DNA of 64,000 nt. Origin: Mucor racemosus (Eukaryota; Mucoromycota; Mucoromycetes; Mucorales; Mucoraceae). The DNA is taken from NCBI GenBank assembly GCA_027405735.1, contig JAPEHQ010000001.1:372001-436000 (forward strand), written 5' to 3'. The notes under the pieces were generated by a model that saw nothing but the letters and a program-made list of their open reading frames with translations, searched no databases and was not told the origin of the DNA. Positions within the stretch are counted from its first letter, which is position 1; each line of letters begins with the position of its first letter. Shown here piece by piece: positions 4,283-64,000 of this stretch. The translations under genes were made by a program, and so were the position numbers.

Positions 4283-5270
4283 CAAAAAAACAAAATGATT
4301 TAATAGCTCATGGATTGCAAAGTAAGTAAGCCTAGCGTTTTAAATGGTTTTTGTACAGTTTTAAATTCTGCATCAATTTAAATAAACTTCAAACAAATGT
4401 CTCACATTAAATTTTGCTTAAAACGCGATTGAAATTTTAGTTGTTTTTTTTGAAGGTACACATCATTTTTTATAGGCAAGTTTCAAATATAAGTAATGGA
4501 GATAATGAGAAACAGAATTATCTATTTATCGAGTTGTTACTGAACCTTCTAGTTGCATATCCCGTAGAGAAAACGAGATTTTTGTTCAAAAAATTTTCAA
4601 ATCCAAAATTTGGGATAAGGGTATACAAGGGAAAAATCAAATATAGAAACGAGGATACCTCTTCAAGCAAATTTTTAGGGATATCTCCATGAAAAATTAA
4701 TATTTTGAAAAAACTAAAGTGAATTTGATAGAGCTCTACGATGCCTATGAGGTGAATGTGAAAAGCATGCTACTAAACATAACAGATATTTAGTAATCTA
4801 CTACAAAAAAGTCAAAAAGGGGAAAAATAAAAAAGTACGTCAAATATTTTTATTCTTGAATATGTCATAGATTGCTTTAAAACAAGTAAATTTCATTAGA
4901 CAATGGTAGTATAGTCTAATTTTTTGTAGAGATATGAAGCCTCAAAGTTTTTAACTTTTAGCAGTGAAATACGCGTAAAATCCGAAACATTAGCATTGAA
5001 AAATTTATAACAACTGCAAAAAATTGGATATTCCTGGATACTTATTTTTGGGTTAAAACTAAACATCTCAGGTATATTGGCATATAGTTTTTTTTGGTGT
5101 TATTTAATGGAAAAAAAAAAGTAGAGCAAGGATGAAAAGTGAGGCCTAGTTTTCAAGGAAAAAGCAATAAATTTTATGCGTTTTAAAATATTTCCTGGGA
5201 TATAAAATAAATCTCGTAGCAGGTAGCATAATGCAACCAATTTATATCAATTTCGCAATATAAGCTATAT
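4283..5270. repeat. ~1 kb noncoding dispersed repeat J (copy 1)
   Basis: This region aligns collinearly, in direct orientation, with 42470-43460, with frequent substitutions and small indels. A third, more diverged partial copy is at about 34420-34760. No frame is conserved between copies, and I found no terminal inverted repeats or TG...CA ends, so the element class is unknown. Confidence 0.7.
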
Positions 5271-56994: not shown

Positions 56995-57094
56995 CGTATT
57001 TTAGCTTTGAGATTGATATAATCTCCTGGCGTAACACTACTGTATGTCCTTAACACCAATACTTGCACCCACCTCATTTTTTATCTGGATTACA

Positions 57095-57177
57095 AAAAAG
57101 CGGGCCATTTTTCAGCTCGAATGGAATGGTCATCTTTGTTAAAACTCGATTCAAACTCGAATCGAAGCCCAATCCTA
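57095..57177. repeat. hAT-like terminus fragment
   Basis: In complement it starts TAGGATTGGGCTTCGATTCGAG at 57177 and continues with AACTCGA-type motifs, like the ends of the 36093-42459 element. No partner end was found nearby. Confidence 0.45.
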
Positions 57178-57375
57178 ATATCATCTACATGGTTTGTAAC
57201 AACTTACTATTATATTGTCGTGTGCTGAGATATATGTTTTACAGTAGATTCAAATAAATGCTGCATACAAAAGATTATATATGAGATAAAAGATGCGATG
57301 ATTTATTATTATTTTATGTTTTGATATTTTATACTAATTAAAAAGGTTCCACACAAAGTCTGTGTGCCGGACGAT

Positions 57376-57516
57376 ATTGTTACAATTATTGAGATTGTAG
57401 TAATATAAATATAAAATAAAGAATAAGAAAAATAGAGTATAATAGCCAATGCAGTTATACTGTATCTATTAAATGAGCACCAGGTTTAAAGTTGTCCAAC
57501 TGTAATAAATGTTTTA
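57376..57516 (+). repeat. LTR family H fragment
   Basis: Begins TGTTACAATTATTG and matches the start of the minus-strand H copy (44746 leftwards), including ATGAGCACCAGGTTTA. It is cut off by the family D LTR at 57517. Confidence 0.55.
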
Positions 57517-57690
57517 TGATTTATCAGAATATGTTTAGGTTAAATAAAAATTAGAAATTTATTCAAGTAAAGAGATATCGTTTATTGGAATGAAATTAAT
57601 AGGGTTTATATACTATTTGATTTGGAGAATTAATGATGTGATAAGGCAGTTTATATGTTATTTAATAGTAATGTGTCATGTTGGTAATAA
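57517..57690 (-). repeat. LTR family D (copy 4), truncated
   Basis: Plus-strand sequence from TGATTTATCAG matches 39549-39720 closely, then similarity ends, so only the R-U5 side remains. Confidence 0.7.
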
Positions 57691-58146
57691 AAAGTCTTTA
57701 CTGGCATCTAAAGAAAAAGTTGAGTTCGTAGATTGTGGTGATATGAGATGTGGTTAACATCCGTATATTTTCATAAATACAGAATGTGTTGATTTATAAT
57801 CACTGAGTAAAGGTTTGTAAAGATTTCAGATATTGATCCTGTCAATATTCGGTTATGTTGTTCTTTTTGTATGAGTTGTAAAATAATATAATGGGAGATT
57901 AAATCGATTAGTATATAAGGTTTGGTGAATTTCGTGTATGGTTTATGTTACCTCTGAACTAGAATTTGGAAGTATAATATAATTTTTGGGAATTAAGATT
58001 GTTTGTTTATTTTGACAGATAATAATTTATTATAAGAAAAAAAAGGAGAGTTGCTGTTCGATTTGCAATAGTATCTCTGCACACGGCATTAGATGTTTCT
58101 GGAAACATCTAACGTTAATAGGAAATTAACAAAAAATAAAATTAAG
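57691..58146. other. gene-free stretch before the tRNA
   Basis: AT-rich, no feature recognised. This is the 3' flank of the minus-strand tRNA-Ala. Confidence 0.35.
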
Positions 58147-58219
58147 TGGAGAAGCTGGGCGTCGATCCCAGTGCCTCTCGCATGCTAAGCGAGCGCTCTA
58201 CCATTTGAGCTACATCCCC
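58147..58219 (-). tRNA. tRNA-Ala (anticodon AGC)
   Basis: 73 nt: GGGGATG acceptor 5' strand, D arm GCTCAAATGGTAGAGC, anticodon loop TTAGCAT (AGC), and T arm CTGGG-ATCGACG-CCCAG with discriminator A. The A and B boxes are present. The acceptor stem has one T-T mismatch (position 6 against 67) because the 3' strand reads CTTCTCC where CATCTCC would pair. The LINE inserted directly at its 5' end has replaced its upstream flank. Confidence 0.9.
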
Positions 58220-58440
58220 ATCTCTTTCCGTTTCTCTAAACTTTTGACAACATTTCGACAGAAAATTTCTCAATCTTTTATTAAAACTCATTTATCTCAA
58301 CAACTAGTTCACCAATCGACTCCAAACTATACCATTATACTCGCCTTCCATAGCAGTTTATTGTTTATAAGTTTCAGCCTTGTTGGACACCTCCATTTTA
58401 TTCTTTAAATTTGCACCTTATTGAATAATATTTCATCGCC

Positions 58441-59376
58441 ATGTTTGAAAATCTACAAGATTTTGATATGCATCAGTTGCCACAGTTGCTTTTGCAGTTT
58501 CAACAACAACTTACCTCAGTACAGGAGAAGGTACACCAACATGAAAGCCTCTTGTTACGAATGGAAAAGTTAGAAAACGAAAATAACACCTTGAAAAAGG
58601 ATATTTTGACCAAGGACCTAGTAATTGAAAAATTACAGGGTCAACTATCCAGTCACCCTACGAACACCACCAACCCTCCGCTTGAAGGAGGTAATGAAGT
58701 CTCTAAACAAGCTACTACCAAACCCAAAGACTCCAATGCAAAGTATGCTAATGCTGCTAAATCTGGTGCTCACCTTCCTGATCCCGCCCGCTCTGCTAAA
58801 AAGCGAGTTGCTGCTGGTCGCCTCTTCAAATCGGCTGCTGCTAAAGGTCCCCAAGGATACCAATATGTATATATTGGTCGCTCTGGTAAGATTTTACGCT
58901 CTGAAATTCGATCTACCTTCCGCAAGGTTGGTGTTGATACTGGTCGTGTCCTAGACATCTGTTTCCCTGCCTCTGGCGTTATTGGTATTCTTCTCCATAC
59001 ACAGTATGTTGAGGAATTTCTTGATCTCATGAAGAAGTGCGAAGCCGAAATCATTGAGGGTTTTGATCCCTTGGATCCCCAACACATTGCTGATCCCAAA
59101 TATGATGCCCTCCATATTAATGACCGTGAGTCGTTAATGTACGAATTTACTAACACTCGTGCCCTGCAAACTTTGTCCTTCCTTCGCCCCCTCAACGTTA
59201 GTGGTGTTGGTAAATACTTTGTATCTGCAGGATGGATCTGTGACGAAGAATTGGCTGTTGCTGTATCTGAAGCTATGGCTCGTTTTGAGGAAAAAGAACC
59301 CAAGAAGGCTAAGTTCTTGCTCAACTCTGCTCGTAAGCGCACTGAAAACTCTAATGGTTCTGAAATGGAACAATAA
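58441..59376 (+). CDS. LINE ORF1 protein, 311 aa
   Basis: Probable RNA-binding nucleocapsid-like protein. An N-terminal heptad-rich coiled coil (about residues 15-75, LLRMEKLENENNTLKKD) is followed by a low-complexity linker with basic stretches (SAKKRVAAGRLFKSAAAKG). An RRM-like fold follows (about 135-200; YVYIGRSGKILRSEIRSTF, then RVLDICFPASGVIGILLH). No CCHC knuckle is visible. Its stop codon TAA (59374-59376) shares its last base with the ATG of ORF2 in the string TAATG. Confidence 0.85.
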   Translation: MFENLQDFDMHQLPQLLLQFQQQLTSVQEKVHQHESLLLRMEKLENENNTLKKDILTKDLVIEKLQGQLSSHPTNTTNPPLEGGNEVSKQATTKPKDSNAKYANAAKSGAHLPDPARSAKKRVAAGRLFKSAAAKGPQGYQYVYIGRSGKILRSEIRSTFRKVGVDTGRVLDICFPASGVIGILLHTQYVEEFLDLMKKCEAEIIEGFDPLDPQHIADPKYDALHINDRESLMYEFTNTRALQTLSFLRPLNVSGVGKYFVSAGWICDEELAVAVSEAMARFEEKEPKKAKFLLNSARKRTENSNGSEMEQ

Positions 59377-62300
59377 TGAGTTCTTCAGTTGAATCCTCAC
59401 CTATGTATAATAATAACCCGGTCCACTCCTTATTTGTTTCTCTCTCCCTATGGAATGCTAATGGTCTACGTGCCTCTGTCGTTCATGATGTTCTGTCTCA
59501 TGTACTGAATTCTCATGTTCTCTTGGTTACTGAAACTTGGCTTACTTCTGGGTCTTTTCCTACTAACTGGTCCCAATTCCACTTGTACGGTACGAAAGTA
59601 TCCGGTGCTTCTGGTCGAGGTTCTGGTGGTATAACTGCTTTTGTCTCTCCTTCCTGTCCCTATCCTGTCTCTCAACTTCCTTCTTATAATTCGCACACTC
59701 TGTCCCTTAAGGTTGGCACCCTGACGGTTCATTGTGTTTACTTTCCTCCACCCTTATCAACAGATAAGGTGCTCTCGATTCTTAGTTCACTACCTATGAC
59801 TAAGGATACTATTTTATGTGGTGACTTTAATGCTCGGTTAGGGTCTCTCACTGGTGATGTTGCTACTAACCCTCGTGGTGTTGCTCTGAAACCTTGGCTT
59901 GAGGAATTTGATCTCTCAGTGCTGAATGCTTCTTTGGCTTATGGTGTTAAAACCTTTACGACGTTTCGACGTCAAAAGGAGGCAAGTAGCATTATTGATC
60001 TGTTTCTGACTAACATTGGTGAGGCTGCTATGCTGAATCCTCAACTGGTGGTTGAGTCTGATCTGTCTCTGGGTTCTGATCATCGGTTGATGTTACTTAC
60101 TTTCGAGTATGTAGCCCCTCCTGGTGATTTGGTGGTGTCTGGTGATTCTGTTCTGGCTCCAAGACGGCAGTGGAAGCTTTCAAAATTGGGTATGATCAAG
60201 CCGTTAAGTCTATATCAAACTCTTTTTCGTTCTTCTGTTGCTCCTCTGGTGGATACTCTGTCTGGTTTGGTCTCGGCTCCTCCTTCTATCCGCCCGGATA
60301 TTGATGCACTCAATGATTCTTTGAATCACTGTTTGTATGACTCTCTTGATGGTTCTATTGGTGTGAAAACTGGTCGTCCTGGTCATTGGAAAAAGTTCTG
60401 GACTCTAGAAATTGAGGATGCTGCTCGTTCAAGGGATCGTCTCTACAGCAAGTGGCGACATTCCACTGGGATTGCCAAAATCAACAACTGGGCTGTCTAC
60501 AAACATGCGCACCGTCAATTTCGGTCATTGGTACAAGCTGCAAAGCGAAGGTCCTGGAAAAAATTCTGTGCTGTATTGGAGAGTGATTTCTCAAAAGCTA
60601 CTGCTGCTATTAAGCGTATTAAACGCCATAAAGAATCCTCTGCCACATATAGTCATCCTGATGGTCCTGCTGCTTCGGTCGCAACTATGGGGTCACATCT
60701 CAAATCTGTCTATAATGGTTCTTTACTTGCTTCTGCTAGTCGTCCTCCACCTCCTGAAACCTTTGATTCTGATCTGCCTTTTAGTGTACCTACGGATATG
60801 TCACTTTTTGATGTTGATACCTTAGTATCTCATATTAAACGGCTCCCCACAAATAAAGCTCCTGGTCCCGACCATATCAAAGCTGAGATGCTCAAATCTC
60901 TGGTGACGGAAATTGCTCCTGTGTTGTCTCTCCTGTTTACCTTGTGCTATCAATGGTGTTACACACCGGCTCTCTGGCGTCAAGCTCAGGTCTTCCCTAT
61001 CTTCAAGAAAGGTGATGCTACTGATCCTGGTAATTTTCGACCGATTTCTCTTACTTCGGTGATGCGTAAGCTCTTTGAATTTTCAATTATGCCTGATCTG
61101 GATGCTCATTCTCCTGCTCTTGATGTTGCGCAAGGTGGTTTCCGTCCTCAACGTAGTCCTCTGGATCAAGCCCTCTGTTTACATGACTTGATGCATGACT
61201 ATTTTCTGATCCATCATCATTACCCTGTAGTGGCCTTCTTAGATATTAAGGCAGCTTATGATACAGTAGATCGTCGAGTTATTTGGCAGTTGCTCGCTAC
61301 CTCAGCTCTCCCTCGTCCAGTCCTTGGTCTGTTGATTAACATGTTTGATGAAGTTTCTGTCTCGGTGCTCATTGCTAACCACAACTCTGCTGCTTTCTCG
61401 CCGGTTACAGGTGTCCTGCAAGGCTCTGTTCTTAGTCCCCATCTGTACTCGTTGTATATCAACTCTTTGCCTGGTGCTCTGCGTGCTGCTGCTTCTGGTG
61501 CCTCTATGATCTGTGCTCCTGGTATGACCAACTCAATAGCAATCAATAGTCTACTTTTTGCTGATGATGTTGCCATATTTGGGCGTCGGTCGGATGTTCA
61601 GCATATGTTGGACCTAGCTTCTGATCACTCTATCTCTCTGGGCTACAGATGGAAACCATCTAAGTGTGCTGTTCTTGGGTCTCCTAATGCTGCTACCGGT
61701 CATAGACTTACTCTATATAATGAACCCCTTCCTATCGTAGAAGAGTCCACTTATTTGGGTATGCCTTTCCGGTATAAAGGTCTGTTTGCCCCTGGTATTC
61801 GGTCTCTTCGGGCTTCTGGTGCTATTCAGGTGATGGCTCTGTTGAATTCGGTTGGTGTAAACCGCACTGGTTTTTCATTGTTGCTCTGCTCGCGCTTGTA
61901 CAAGGCCTTTATTCGTCCAAAACTCGAATATGGCCTAGCTATATCTCACCTCTCCTTTCGGGATTTCAAGGATCTGGATGATGTTCAGAATCGATTAGTT
62001 GGCATGTTTGTGGGTAGCTCCTGGTTTAATGTTGCAAAACATATAACTTGCTTGCCCAGTATGAAACATCGCTATAATGTTCTAGCTACTAGATTTGCTC
62101 TGCGTGCTGCTACCCTGCCTGAGGACTGTCTCTTGGTGATCCTGCGTAACGCTCTTTCCTACACTAGGTTAGATAAATACATTTGTGAAAACAAATTGTA
62201 TCAGTCGTTACCTGATCCTGTTCCTTCTGCTGCTGGATTAGTTTCTGTTTTCAACAAATATTGGCAAGACCAGGTAGATCGCCAAATGGAAGCGGCTGCT

Positions 62301-62738
62301 GTTTCTGGATCTAATACTTTGCTGCGTGCTTGTCGTCCCTCTGTTGTGAGACCTGATCCCATCCTATATCTACCAATAGGTCGCTCTGCTCGCAGTCGAC
62401 TGGTTCGATGGCGCCTTGGTCGGTTCACCAACATGCGAGAAGAATGTTCGTGTATGTCACCCTTGGGTGTTCATATCTCTCGAGATCATTTTCTGACCTG
62501 TCGTGCTCTGGATGGTGAGCTACTAGATGCTTTACCTTCTGCTCCTTTCGGTACCAACAAGATCGATCATGCTTTGAACTGTCTCCCGGTCAAATCCTCG
62601 GCTGGTCCTCCTCCATATTGGTCGGCTTTACTTTCTCTGCTTCATGCAATTGATTGTATTTCACACCCATTGGCTGTCATTGCTCCAGATCAAGATCCCG
62701 GATCTTTATGGTTCACTGACAAAAAGACTAAACATTGA
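59376..62738 (+). CDS. LINE ORF2: AP endonuclease-like and reverse transcriptase, 1120 aa
   Basis: The N-terminal endonuclease motifs are all visible: SLWNANGLR, TETWL, GGITAFV, GDFNAR (from residue 149), IIDLFLT and GSDHR. The reverse transcriptase has NKAPGPDHI, FRPISLTSV, QGGFRPQRS, VAFLDIKAAYDTV, GVLQGSVLSP and the catalytic FADD (F728-D731). The C-terminus has a Cys/His cluster (CSCMSPLGVHISRDHFLTC). No RNase H domain is seen. There is no stop or frameshift, so the element may be competent to move. The start overlaps the ORF1 stop. Confidence 0.93.
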   Translation: MSSSVESSPMYNNNPVHSLFVSLSLWNANGLRASVVHDVLSHVLNSHVLLVTETWLTSGSFPTNWSQFHLYGTKVSGASGRGSGGITAFVSPSCPYPVSQLPSYNSHTLSLKVGTLTVHCVYFPPPLSTDKVLSILSSLPMTKDTILCGDFNARLGSLTGDVATNPRGVALKPWLEEFDLSVLNASLAYGVKTFTTFRRQKEASSIIDLFLTNIGEAAMLNPQLVVESDLSLGSDHRLMLLTFEYVAPPGDLVVSGDSVLAPRRQWKLSKLGMIKPLSLYQTLFRSSVAPLVDTLSGLVSAPPSIRPDIDALNDSLNHCLYDSLDGSIGVKTGRPGHWKKFWTLEIEDAARSRDRLYSKWRHSTGIAKINNWAVYKHAHRQFRSLVQAAKRRSWKKFCAVLESDFSKATAAIKRIKRHKESSATYSHPDGPAASVATMGSHLKSVYNGSLLASASRPPPPETFDSDLPFSVPTDMSLFDVDTLVSHIKRLPTNKAPGPDHIKAEMLKSLVTEIAPVLSLLFTLCYQWCYTPALWRQAQVFPIFKKGDATDPGNFRPISLTSVMRKLFEFSIMPDLDAHSPALDVAQGGFRPQRSPLDQALCLHDLMHDYFLIHHHYPVVAFLDIKAAYDTVDRRVIWQLLATSALPRPVLGLLINMFDEVSVSVLIANHNSAAFSPVTGVLQGSVLSPHLYSLYINSLPGALRAAASGASMICAPGMTNSIAINSLLFADDVAIFGRRSDVQHMLDLASDHSISLGYRWKPSKCAVLGSPNAATGHRLTLYNEPLPIVEESTYLGMPFRYKGLFAPGIRSLRASGAIQVMALLNSVGVNRTGFSLLLCSRLYKAFIRPKLEYGLAISHLSFRDFKDLDDVQNRLVGMFVGSSWFNVAKHITCLPSMKHRYNVLATRFALRAATLPEDCLLVILRNALSYTRLDKYICENKLYQSLPDPVPSAAGLVSVFNKYWQDQVDRQMEAAAVSGSNTLLRACRPSVVRPDPILYLPIGRSARSRLVRWRLGRFTNMREECSCMSPLGVHISRDHFLTCRALDGELLDALPSAPFGTNKIDHALNCLPVKSSAGPPPYWSALLSLLHAIDCISHPLAVIAPDQDPGSLWFTDKKTKH

Positions 62739-63011
62739 TGAAAAATGACTGTATTGCTTTCTTTGTGCGGATCCTCGGTGGTAAGTCTTATCAAAGTTCC
62801 CAGCCGTTGGTAATCTCTCAAGATCAATTTCAGTTCATCCACTAATCTCACTGCTCAATATCCACTACCACACCATCATTTTCCCTTAAATTAGTATAGT
62901 GCCCTGTCAAGGGTTTTTTGTTTCTCTTTTCTCCATGTTTCTTAAATTTAAGGCTTATGCTCATATCGAGTGCCCATTTAAATTTTATTAATAAAAAACC
63001 AATTCTTAACC
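62739..63011 (+). other. LINE 3' UTR
   Basis: Follows the ORF2 stop. AATAAA occurs at about 62991 just before the end. No simple tail repeat is present. Confidence 0.7.
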
Positions 63012-63025
63012 TGAGCTACATCCCC

Positions 63026-63329
63026 TTTTCACATGTTAAAGTGGATCAAAAAATTGCCCAAATATCAAACATTACATTTTACTGCCACCGCAACTAAAGT
63101 CCGTATTACCTCGTTTTCCCTGCAGGTAATACGTCCAAATTTTTTTTTAGTATAAAGAAAATTATGTAAGCAATGAAAAAATTTGAAAACATTGTAATAT
63201 AATAGTAATATTTTCAATATGAGCAAATAAAAAAAGGTTTAAGAATATAGAGAGCCTGTAGAAAGTGTAAAATGTTGAATAAAACGTTGGAGTTGTTTAG
63301 GTATACGAAATAAAAACCAGGAATTAAAA
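63026..63329. other. original upstream flank of the tRNA target; inverted repeat
   Basis: Before the LINE inserted, this sequence lay directly 5' of tRNA-Ala. CGTATTACCT and AGGTAATACG (about 63093-63130) form a 10 bp stem. Part of it (CTGCAGGTAATACG) recurs at about 63856. Confidence 0.5.
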
Positions 63330-63916
63330 TCAGAATTCAATATATTTATTGCGTATATTTCTTGAGGAAAAAGTAAGATAAGCACTAATCAAATGTATGA
63401 TGGGTCTGTATTTATATGTTTTAGGAGCGCGGATATAGGATGGATATCCCAGTTGACCAGAACCAGCAAAAGCAAGGGATCCAAAGTTAATTATATACAG
63501 AATATCCTTGATCGAACAATAGACTTAATGATTCTTCTACATCATGAATCAGCTCAAGTAATGTGTCCCATACCTATTCCTAATTGGCTGACTCTCAAAA
63601 AATACTGTATCCCAACCCTTGGATTAATTCCCACAAAACCACTGATACCTATTCCCAATATTGAAATAAAGTTTACAGCATCATTCATCATATCTCCCGC
63701 ATCTACGACCAAGTCTGGATAATCCATTTATAACTCTAAAAGTGAATGATGCCATCTATCCTATTTCCATTATGTAACCCATAATGCTCGTTAATCTAGT
63801 CTATCCTAAACAGGAGTATGAATATAATACGTTCGTTTTGTCATGCGCATTCTCTGCAGGTAATACGCTAATATTCTTTTTTAAGTATTACTTCTCAAAC
63901 TTGAAAATATACGACA
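63330..63916 (+). repeat. dispersed repeat I (copy 2) and an LTR B-like 3' end
   Basis: 63330-63470 matches 55610-55760. The stretch 63866-63916, ending AATATACGACA, resembles the end of the family B LTRs (TTTTTTAAGTA, then GAAAATATACGACA). The frame 63393-63722 has no recognisable product. Confidence 0.5.
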
Positions 63917-64000
63917 TAAAGAGAGCGAGAGTTTTTGGATACATACAATCTTATTTATAGAAAGAATAGTAATAAAGACTAGTAACATTTATCATGAAGA

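What the first reader, a model, noticed from the sequence alone, without database searches (positions are those of the whole stretch)
58147..63025. Intact LINE inserted at the 5' end of a tRNA-Ala gene; the target duplication is tRNA nucleotides 1-14
The 14 bp TGAGCTACATCCCC lies on both sides of the LINE and corresponds exactly to the first 14 nt of the minus-strand tRNA-Ala, ending inside the A box. The duplication keeps the tRNA whole while replacing its 5' flank with the LINE 5' UTR, head to head. This is what a tRNA-targeting retrotransposon that spares its host gene would look like, comparable in principle to Dictyostelium TRE elements but with the cut inside the gene. One insertion cannot prove specificity.
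Basis: partly seen in the sequence, partly recalled or inferred. Interest (0 to 1): 0.9.

Follow-up and report, generated by a model that had tools for sequence, protein, structure and literature searches.

The report
LINE that inserts inside tRNA genes
A jumping gene in what appears to be a Mucorales fungus inserts at one fixed spot inside tRNA genes and copies their first 13-14 letters as it lands, so the tRNA gene stays whole and can be hit again.

Summary
Window 58220-63011 is an intact two-ORF APE-type LINE, 5' to 5' with a tRNA-Ala(AGC) gene and flanked by TGAGCTACATCCCC, the complement of tRNA nt 1-14. Of 22 related insertions with a readable end in this genome, 21 lie at a tRNA 5' end or carry its copied stub; in 18 of 18 with both junctions readable, both sides show the same tRNA. 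Seven tRNA species and several element families are involved. Six of 11 distinct tRNA-Ala(AGC) genes are occupied. The five empty ones show that the sequence beyond the stub is the displaced tRNA flank. Repeated hits give head-to-tail, also mixed-family, stacks. One diverged copy is off target. Two copies of another LINE family have poly(A) tails and non-tRNA targets. Best explanation: target-primed reverse transcription from a nick in the A box near nt 14, with a second cut at nt 1. Whether DNA alone or Pol III factors guide it is open. tRNA-targeted LINEs are known; this A-box, gene-restoring, multi-isotype fungal form looks like a new variant.

The parts
58146..58219 (-). tRNA-Ala(AGC) gene, whole; nt 1 = 58219, nt 14 = 58206
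   Evidence: ARAGORN; its 47-base core is matched without mismatch at 12 places of the genome
58206..58219 (.). left copy of the 14-bp target duplication TGAGCTACATCCCC = complement of tRNA nt 14-1 (the A box lies from about nt 8 on)
   Evidence: sequence; same kind of junction in other copies
58220..63011 (+). intact LINE, family A, 4792 bp; the T at 63012 may be its last base or the first of the duplication
58220..58440 (+). 5' UTR, now the 5' flank of the tRNA gene
58441..59376 (+). ORF1, 311 aa: predicted N-terminal coiled coil, beta-alpha-beta-beta-alpha part, helical C-terminal part
59376..62738 (+). ORF2, 1120 aa: APE-type endonuclease and reverse transcriptase; overlaps the ORF1 stop by one base (TAATG)
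62739..63011 (+). 3' UTR without poly(A) tail; AATAAA at 62990-62995, 16 bases before the end
63012..63025 (.). right copy of the 14-bp duplication (stub of tRNA nt 1-14)
63026..63080 (.). displaced native 5' flank of the tRNA-Ala gene; 91% identical over the compared columns to the flank of one empty tRNA-Ala gene, 79-85% to four others

Best explanation
This is a LINE lineage that integrates site-specifically inside tRNA genes. Shown by sequence: insertion at one fixed position of several tRNA species, with the LINE 5' end facing the tRNA 5' end, a 13-14 bp duplication equal to tRNA nt 1-13/14, the native 5' flank displaced beyond the element, truncated copies as expected of reverse transcription, and repeated insertion at the same gene. 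Inferred: the ORF2 endonuclease nicks the RNA-like strand of the tRNA gene within the A box after nt 13-14 (after TRGCTCA in the tRNA targets of A, B and X, TGGTGTA in those of C); the 3' end there primes reverse transcription of the LINE RNA, whose body ends 8-16 bases after an AATAAA; the other strand is cut opposite nt 1, so that nt 1-14 end up on both sides. The tRNA gene with its internal promoter stays whole, the element takes the place of its 5' flank, and the target is regenerated, so stacks build up with the newest copy next to the tRNA. Direct reading of the A box by the endonuclease, perhaps helped by Pol III factors, is my preferred but unproven means of recognition.
For: Junctions of A, B, C and X copies at Ala, Thr(AGT), Thr(TGT), Lys, Phe, Ile and Val genes. 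18 of 18 insertions with both junctions readable have the same tRNA on both sides. 6 of 11 distinct tRNA-Ala(AGC) genes occupied; all 12 pattern matches are free of mismatches. Empty-site comparison with the five unoccupied genes. Mixed stacks: A over B at Lys and at Ala, X over A at Thr. In the C8/C16 array the distal unit is 1 substitution from the copy at the C4 Thr gene but 4 from the two C8 units, so at least two insertions. Ten full-length A copies or units differ by at most 8 substitutions in about 4.8 kb and 9 of 10 keep both frames, so the family moved recently. Two copies of control family F have poly(A) and non-tRNA duplications.
Against: One readable copy (C5:1104-1107 kb, 86.6% to B, 5'-truncated) ends at TGACTTGAACTCC, not a tRNA start, so specificity is not absolute or the site has changed. 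Three degraded places (C10:159 kb, C3:2.606 Mb, C1:3.117-3.129 Mb) show no tRNA in what I fetched; at C1:3.121 Mb a 5' region lacking a clear match to the first 15 bases has no tRNA beside it. Family E has a 17-nt, not 14-nt, Val stub and a disrupted 5' side. The C16 flank of the array hardly resembles the empty-gene flanks (38-51%). Nothing here shows cleavage, transcription or the order of the cuts. Other species could not be examined at the DNA level.
Confidence: 0.9

Rival explanations
1. Recognition is by tethering: ORF1 or ORF2 binds the Pol III machinery (TFIIIB/TFIIIC) on the tRNA gene, as proposed for Dictyostelium TRE5-A, and the A-box cut is only where the tethered nuclease reaches. 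(This rivals only the recognition step of the best explanation.)
For: The 7-mer TRGCTCA alone occurs 8 times in 59.1 kb of the window outside the LINE, one of them in the window's tRNA-Ile, which implies thousands of sites genome-wide, yet the readable A and B insertions sit in tRNA genes with one exception; TRE5-A ORF1 binds TFIIIB subunits (PMC5911963, PMC5391098, passages).
Against: The cut is at one exact place, not in a window of several bases as for TRE5, TRE3 or NLTR-A. A longer A-box motif TRGCTCARNYGG has only 161 sites against 37 for the reversed control, so reading about 10 bases of DNA could be enough.
Confidence: 0.4
2. The stacks arise mainly by unequal crossing over between copies, not by repeated insertion.
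For: The proximal C8 unit and its neighbour are identical over the element, and the spacing is nearly constant at 4802-4806 in C8, C16 and C37.
Against: Mixed-family stacks at Lys, Ala and Thr genes cannot come from crossing over of one copy; the distal array unit differs from its mates; the proximal C8 unit has an extra C at its 5' junction. Crossing over may still have added units.
Confidence: 0.2
3. The tRNA is a 5' module carried by the element, as in SINE heads.
For: A tRNA abuts the 5' end of many copies.
Against: Different copies have different tRNAs, the 3' stub follows the tRNA of that locus, and empty tRNA-Ala genes carry a flank like that beyond the 3' stub.
Confidence: 0.01
4. Insertion is broad and only copies at tRNA starts survive selection.
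For: Inserts at tRNA starts may be harmless (inference).
Against: Selection would hardly pick one exact place in seven tRNA species; another LINE family survives elsewhere in the same genome.
Confidence: 0.03

Closest known systems
Dictyostelium TRE5 / TRE3 LINEs
   Same: tRNA-gene-targeted two-ORF APE LINEs; TRE-TRE tandems at one gene; many tRNA genes hit (PMC5391098, PMC5911963, PMC5006619: passages)
   Different: insert about 40-54 bp upstream or 40-150 bp downstream, not inside the gene; end in an A tail
Dictyostelium purpureum NLTR-A
   Same: non-LTR element a few bp 5' of the tRNA coding sequence (PMC5006619: passages)
   Different: carries RNase H; 2-6 bp upstream of nt 1; the passages I saw give no target duplication or cut inside the gene
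NeSL-related tRNA-gene elements: NeSL-1_TV (tRNA-Pro), LIN15_SM (tRNA-Arg), LIN25_SM (tRNA-Glu)
   Same: non-LTR retrotransposons specific for tRNA genes (PMC4640811: passage)
   Different: the NeSL clade encodes a restriction-like endonuclease; one tRNA species named per family; the passage does not say whether the gene is restored
Dewa (zebrafish)
   Same: target-specific non-LTR element linked to tRNA genes (PMC3706591: passage)
Dada DNA transposons of Perkinsus marinus
   Same: insert in tRNA genes; putative duplication TAGCTC, part of the A box (PMC3706591: passage)
   Different: DDE transposons with 6-7 bp duplications; each family has its own tRNA gene
Mucor Grem-LINE1
   Same: L1-like LINE of Mucoromycotina (PMC7377519: passages)
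   Different: pericentric, drawn with a zf-RVT domain, which A, B and C lack in Pfam scans; control families F and G have it

Membership tests
non-LTR retrotransposon (LINE), APE type | endonuclease of the Exo_endo_phos type plus reverse transcriptase in ORF2 | tested here: met
   best solved relatives are human L1 ORF2p
non-LTR retrotransposon (LINE), APE type | target duplication and 5' truncation as left by target-primed reverse transcription | tested here: met
target-specific LINE | several independent copies at the same site of a repeated gene class | tested here: met
   21 of 22 readable insertions
TRE5/TRE3 | insertion outside the tRNA gene, about 50 bp upstream or 100 bp downstream | tested here: not met
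   cut inside the gene near nt 14
TRE5/TRE3 | ORF1 contact with TFIIIB | not testable with these tools
   needs protein work
NeSL clade | restriction-like endonuclease instead of an APE | tested here: not met
   APE-type domain upstream of the RT
L1 / Tx1 clade | RT phylogeny with reference elements | not tested
   reference elements were not at hand; no RNase H by Pfam, best PDB match human L1
Grem-LINE1 | zf-RVT domain | tested here: not met
   none in A, B, C
Grem-LINE1 | pericentric location | not tested
   centromeres of this genome not located

The most novel reading that the evidence does not exclude
An APE endonuclease has evolved to read the A box, the internal Pol III promoter shared by many tRNA genes, and its 14-nt stagger fits the distance from the cut to nt 1, so that each insertion rebuilds the gene and its own target. 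The element 5' UTR would then act as the tRNA gene's new upstream region, facing it head to head, and sister families have divided the tRNA set between them (C at Val in 4 of 4; A at Ala in 6 of 9; B at five different tRNAs in its six on-target insertions).
Probability: 0.45. Interest if true: 0.82.

Novelty: new variant of a known kind. Interest (0 to 1): 0.7.

Why it matters
It gives a natural LINE that lands at one exact place in many unlinked members of a gene class without breaking the gene: a safe-harbour integrator aimed at a promoter element rather than one gene. It makes testable whether an APE nuclease alone can read the A box, how Pol III genes work when their 5' flank is replaced, and how sister families divide tRNA species. 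It would add a Mucorales fungus to the hosts of tRNA-targeted LINEs, with another nuclease type than the NeSL-related elements.

Tried and rejected
Rejected: tRNA as a module of the element; crossing over alone for the stacks (mixed families); the 7-mer as sufficient target. C37 was first counted as a separate locus, then found to repeat the C8/C16 locus, so tRNA-Ala counts were lowered from 7 of 12 to 6 of 11. C35 and C37 units are not counted as separate insertions.

Led nowhere: related DNA in viral and prokaryote contigs (no relative), so the target could not be checked in other species. The pattern search for further non-Ala junctions found 9 places, 7 of them junctions already known and 2 on C20 that look like chance; the reversed control had none. 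Foldseek of ORF1 gave no match at E 0.001 or better. Folding of two 3' UTR stretches was not remarkable. No tandem repeats at 57000-64000. The tRNA census was partial (63 scored of 3128 first-look candidates), so the share of all tRNA genes hit is unknown. One search timed out without output and one search failed on time; the tree was redone on 51 rows that I chose and only shows that A and B each have closer relatives elsewhere. The ends of control family G were not reached.

Searches for prior reports. None of the listings showed, by title and start of abstract, a fungal LINE inserting inside tRNA genes; papers outside that library and Repbase entries were not seen. Of eight papers only the passages returned were seen, none in full.

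Full report
Observation. The window holds a tRNA-Ala(AGC) gene at 58146-58219 on the minus strand and, head to head with it, a LINE at 58220-63011 with ORF1 58441-59376 and ORF2 59376-62738, the start codon overlapping the ORF1 stop by one base. TGAGCTACATCCCC, the complement of tRNA nt 14-1, lies at 58206-58219 and 63012-63025. The uncertain base is the T complementary to A14, which may belong to the element.

Genome-wide test. The genome (53.2 Mb, 54 contigs) was searched with the element's ends and its ORF2, with the ORF2 of a relative and with the 3' part of element X; such counts are lower bounds (41 of 168 first-look candidates scored). The contigs are unnamed. The protein relatives that carry organism names are from Mucorales (Mucor, Parasitella, Rhizopus, Cokeromyces, Phycomyces, Dichotomocladium), so the host is inferred to be a Mucorales fungus.

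Families. A (window): ten full-length copies or array units compared differ by at most 8 substitutions, 9 of 10 with both frames open. B: 81% identical in ORF2; the single TAG reported in it appears to be its own stop near the end, since a family C query finds the frame open to residue 1111 and the C17 copy has open frames of 348 and 1167 codons. C: 47% identical in ORF2, two copies with a full-length open ORF2 and shorter ones. X: one copy, about 2 kb, ORF1-like only, with a stop in its frame. E: one broken relative on C2.

Junctions. A, nine: Ala on C1 (window), C3, C5, C8:561 kb, C8:1.89 Mb and the C8/C16 array; Thr(AGT) on C4 and, 5' end only, on C22; Lys on C7 (5'-truncated). B, seven: Lys on C7, Phe on C7, Ala on C8:556 kb, Thr(TGT) on C17, Ile on C22 (5'-truncated) and on C1:4.46 Mb, and one off target. 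C, four: Val on C10 (5'-truncated), C2:82 kb, C2:29-32 kb (5'-truncated), and a 3' Val stub on C2:27 kb. X: Thr(AGT) on C22. E: a 17-nt Val stub at the 3' end, 5' side disrupted. Together 22 insertions with at least one readable end, the array counted once; 21 are at a tRNA 5' end or carry its stub. The exception is a B-like, 5'-truncated copy (86.6% to B) at C5:1104-1107 kb whose 3' flank is TGACTTGAACTCC. Three degraded places were left out of the count: C10:159 kb, C3:2.606 Mb and C1:3.117-3.129 Mb; no tRNA was seen in what I fetched of them, and at C1:3.121 Mb a decayed 5' region stands without a tRNA. Both junctions are readable in 18 insertions, and in 18 of 18 the two sides belong to the same tRNA. 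At C2:82 kb the fetched piece cuts the tRNA-Val, which I recognised by sequence, not by ARAGORN. Small deviations: one extra C at the proximal C8 unit, six extra bases at the C1 Ile copy, loss of a few 5' bases in the Ala B copy, and a longer A run near the 3' end of the Phe copy.

Occupancy and empty sites. The tRNA-Ala(AGC) pattern has 12 matches, none with a mismatch. Seven adjoin an A element, but contig C37 repeats the flanks of the C8/C16 locus at 99.6% and 97.9%, so 6 of 11 distinct genes are occupied. The five unoccupied genes were fetched. Their 5' flanks align with the sequence beyond the 3' stub of occupied ones over 55 alignment columns: 91% for the window against one of them, 72-85% for the other 24 pairs of five occupied and five empty loci; the C16 flank aligns poorly, 38-51%. 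So the element separates the gene from its native 5' flank.

Stacks. A units stand head to tail at intervals of 4802-4806 bp in C8, C16 and C37, and at 4806 in three intervals of C35 with one of 6720. The stub TGAGCTACATCCCC stands between units at each of the eight places checked in C35, C37 and C16 (L001-L008), at one more in C35 (L032) and in C8 and C16. Mixed stacks (A over B at Lys and at Ala, X over A at Thr) show sequential insertion at a regenerated target; that the tRNA-proximal one is the newer follows from this geometry. In the array the distal unit is 1 substitution from the copy at the C4 Thr gene and 4 from the two C8 units, which are identical: at least two insertions, with possible later amplification. 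C35 consists largely of such units and is partly rearranged or poorly assembled.

Controls. Of 51 endonuclease-domain matches in the genome, 21 lie outside the places of A, B, C and E by my reading of the list. Four copies of two such families were fetched, 4 of those 21. The two family F copies have a poly(A) tail, duplications with TTTGTCGAGAAA and GTTTGTCA plus a T run, and no tRNA. The two family G copies have no tRNA in the fetched stretch, but their ends were not reached. F and G have zf-RVT; A, B and C do not.

Mechanism. The junctions fix the geometry: the strand that primes reverse transcription is the RNA-like strand of the tRNA gene, cut after nt 13 or 14, and the other strand is cut opposite nt 1 (inference from target-primed reverse transcription). 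Nt 14 is A in each tRNA hit by A, B, C and X, and the element's possible terminal U could pair with it (inference). The bases before the cut are TRGCTCA in the tRNA targets of A, B and X and TGGTGTA in those of C. The 7-mer alone is too common (8 in 59.1 kb); TRGCTCARNYGG has 161 sites against 37 for the reversed control, so either a longer reading of DNA or Pol III factors must add specificity. All five families have AATAAA 8-16 bases before the 3' end and no poly(A) tail there, unlike family F. ORF1 is predicted as a coiled coil followed by a beta-alpha-beta-beta-alpha part and helices (mean pLDDT 76.5), which recalls L1 ORF1p (from memory); Foldseek gave no significant match. Motifs of APE and RT (for instance SDH and FADD) are visible in ORF2; their naming is from memory.

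Relation to known systems. tRNA-targeting LINEs are known: TRE5/TRE3 and NLTR-A/B in dictyostelids (PMC5911963, PMC5006619, PMC5391098: passages), Dewa in the tRNA-Leu spacer (PMC3706591: passage), and NeSL-1_TV, LIN15_SM and LIN25_SM specific for tRNA-Pro, -Arg and -Glu genes (PMC4640811: passage). Dada DNA transposons hit tRNA genes, in Perkinsus at the A box (PMC3706591: passage). What appears new is the combination: fungal host, APE nuclease, cut inside the A box, duplication that restores nt 1-14, several tRNA species per family, and regenerated target with stacks. Nine literature searches listed no such report.

Verdict. The finding is real and the targeting interpretation is supported. 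The kind is known; the variant appears new. Recognition remains the open step.

Noticed in passing
window 63080-63145 (hairpin 63102-63133): A repeat with a perfect 10-bp palindrome, 40 matches listed (71 candidates, 40 scored). Against my partial tRNA list, 6 of 40 lie 56-62 bp upstream of a tRNA and read away from it, 3 at 431-1215 bp, 3 stand beyond LINE inserts, 28 have no listed tRNA near. It may be a second tRNA-linked mobile element or an upstream element of tRNA genes; its RNA would fold strongly (z -6).
   Followed up: partly
window 63026-63070 and L046-L050: About 40 bp upstream of tRNA-Ala(AGC) genes are conserved between most loci (like TTTTCACATGTTAAAGT..ATCAAAAAATT), suggesting an upstream promoter part that the LINE pushes away; the C16 locus is an exception.
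   Followed up: partly
L025 4245-6278 (C22): Element X: about 2 kb, ORF1-like only, at a tRNA-Thr gene above an older A fragment; its 3' part has one match in the genome. Looks like a non-autonomous member, comparable to TRE5-A.2.
   Followed up: partly
L039 336-1950 (C2:27 kb): Internally deleted family C copy (5' part joined to 3' end) with a tRNA-Val stub, another likely non-autonomous form.
   Followed up: partly
L036 2352 (C5:1106 kb): The off-target copy ends at TGACTTGAACTCC; its complement holds GTTCAAGTC, which resembles a tRNA B box (motif recalled). Possibly chance.
   Followed up: no
contigs C35 and C37: C37 duplicates the locus that joins the end of C16 to the start of C8; the LINE array probably broke the assembly there.
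   Followed up: partly
L040 and L041 (C2:32-38 kb): Broken family E at a tRNA-Val gene with a 17-nt stub; the flank motif TTTCATATTA stands both next to the tRNA and beyond the stub, so another insertion or rearrangement seems to lie between tRNA and LINE.
   Followed up: partly
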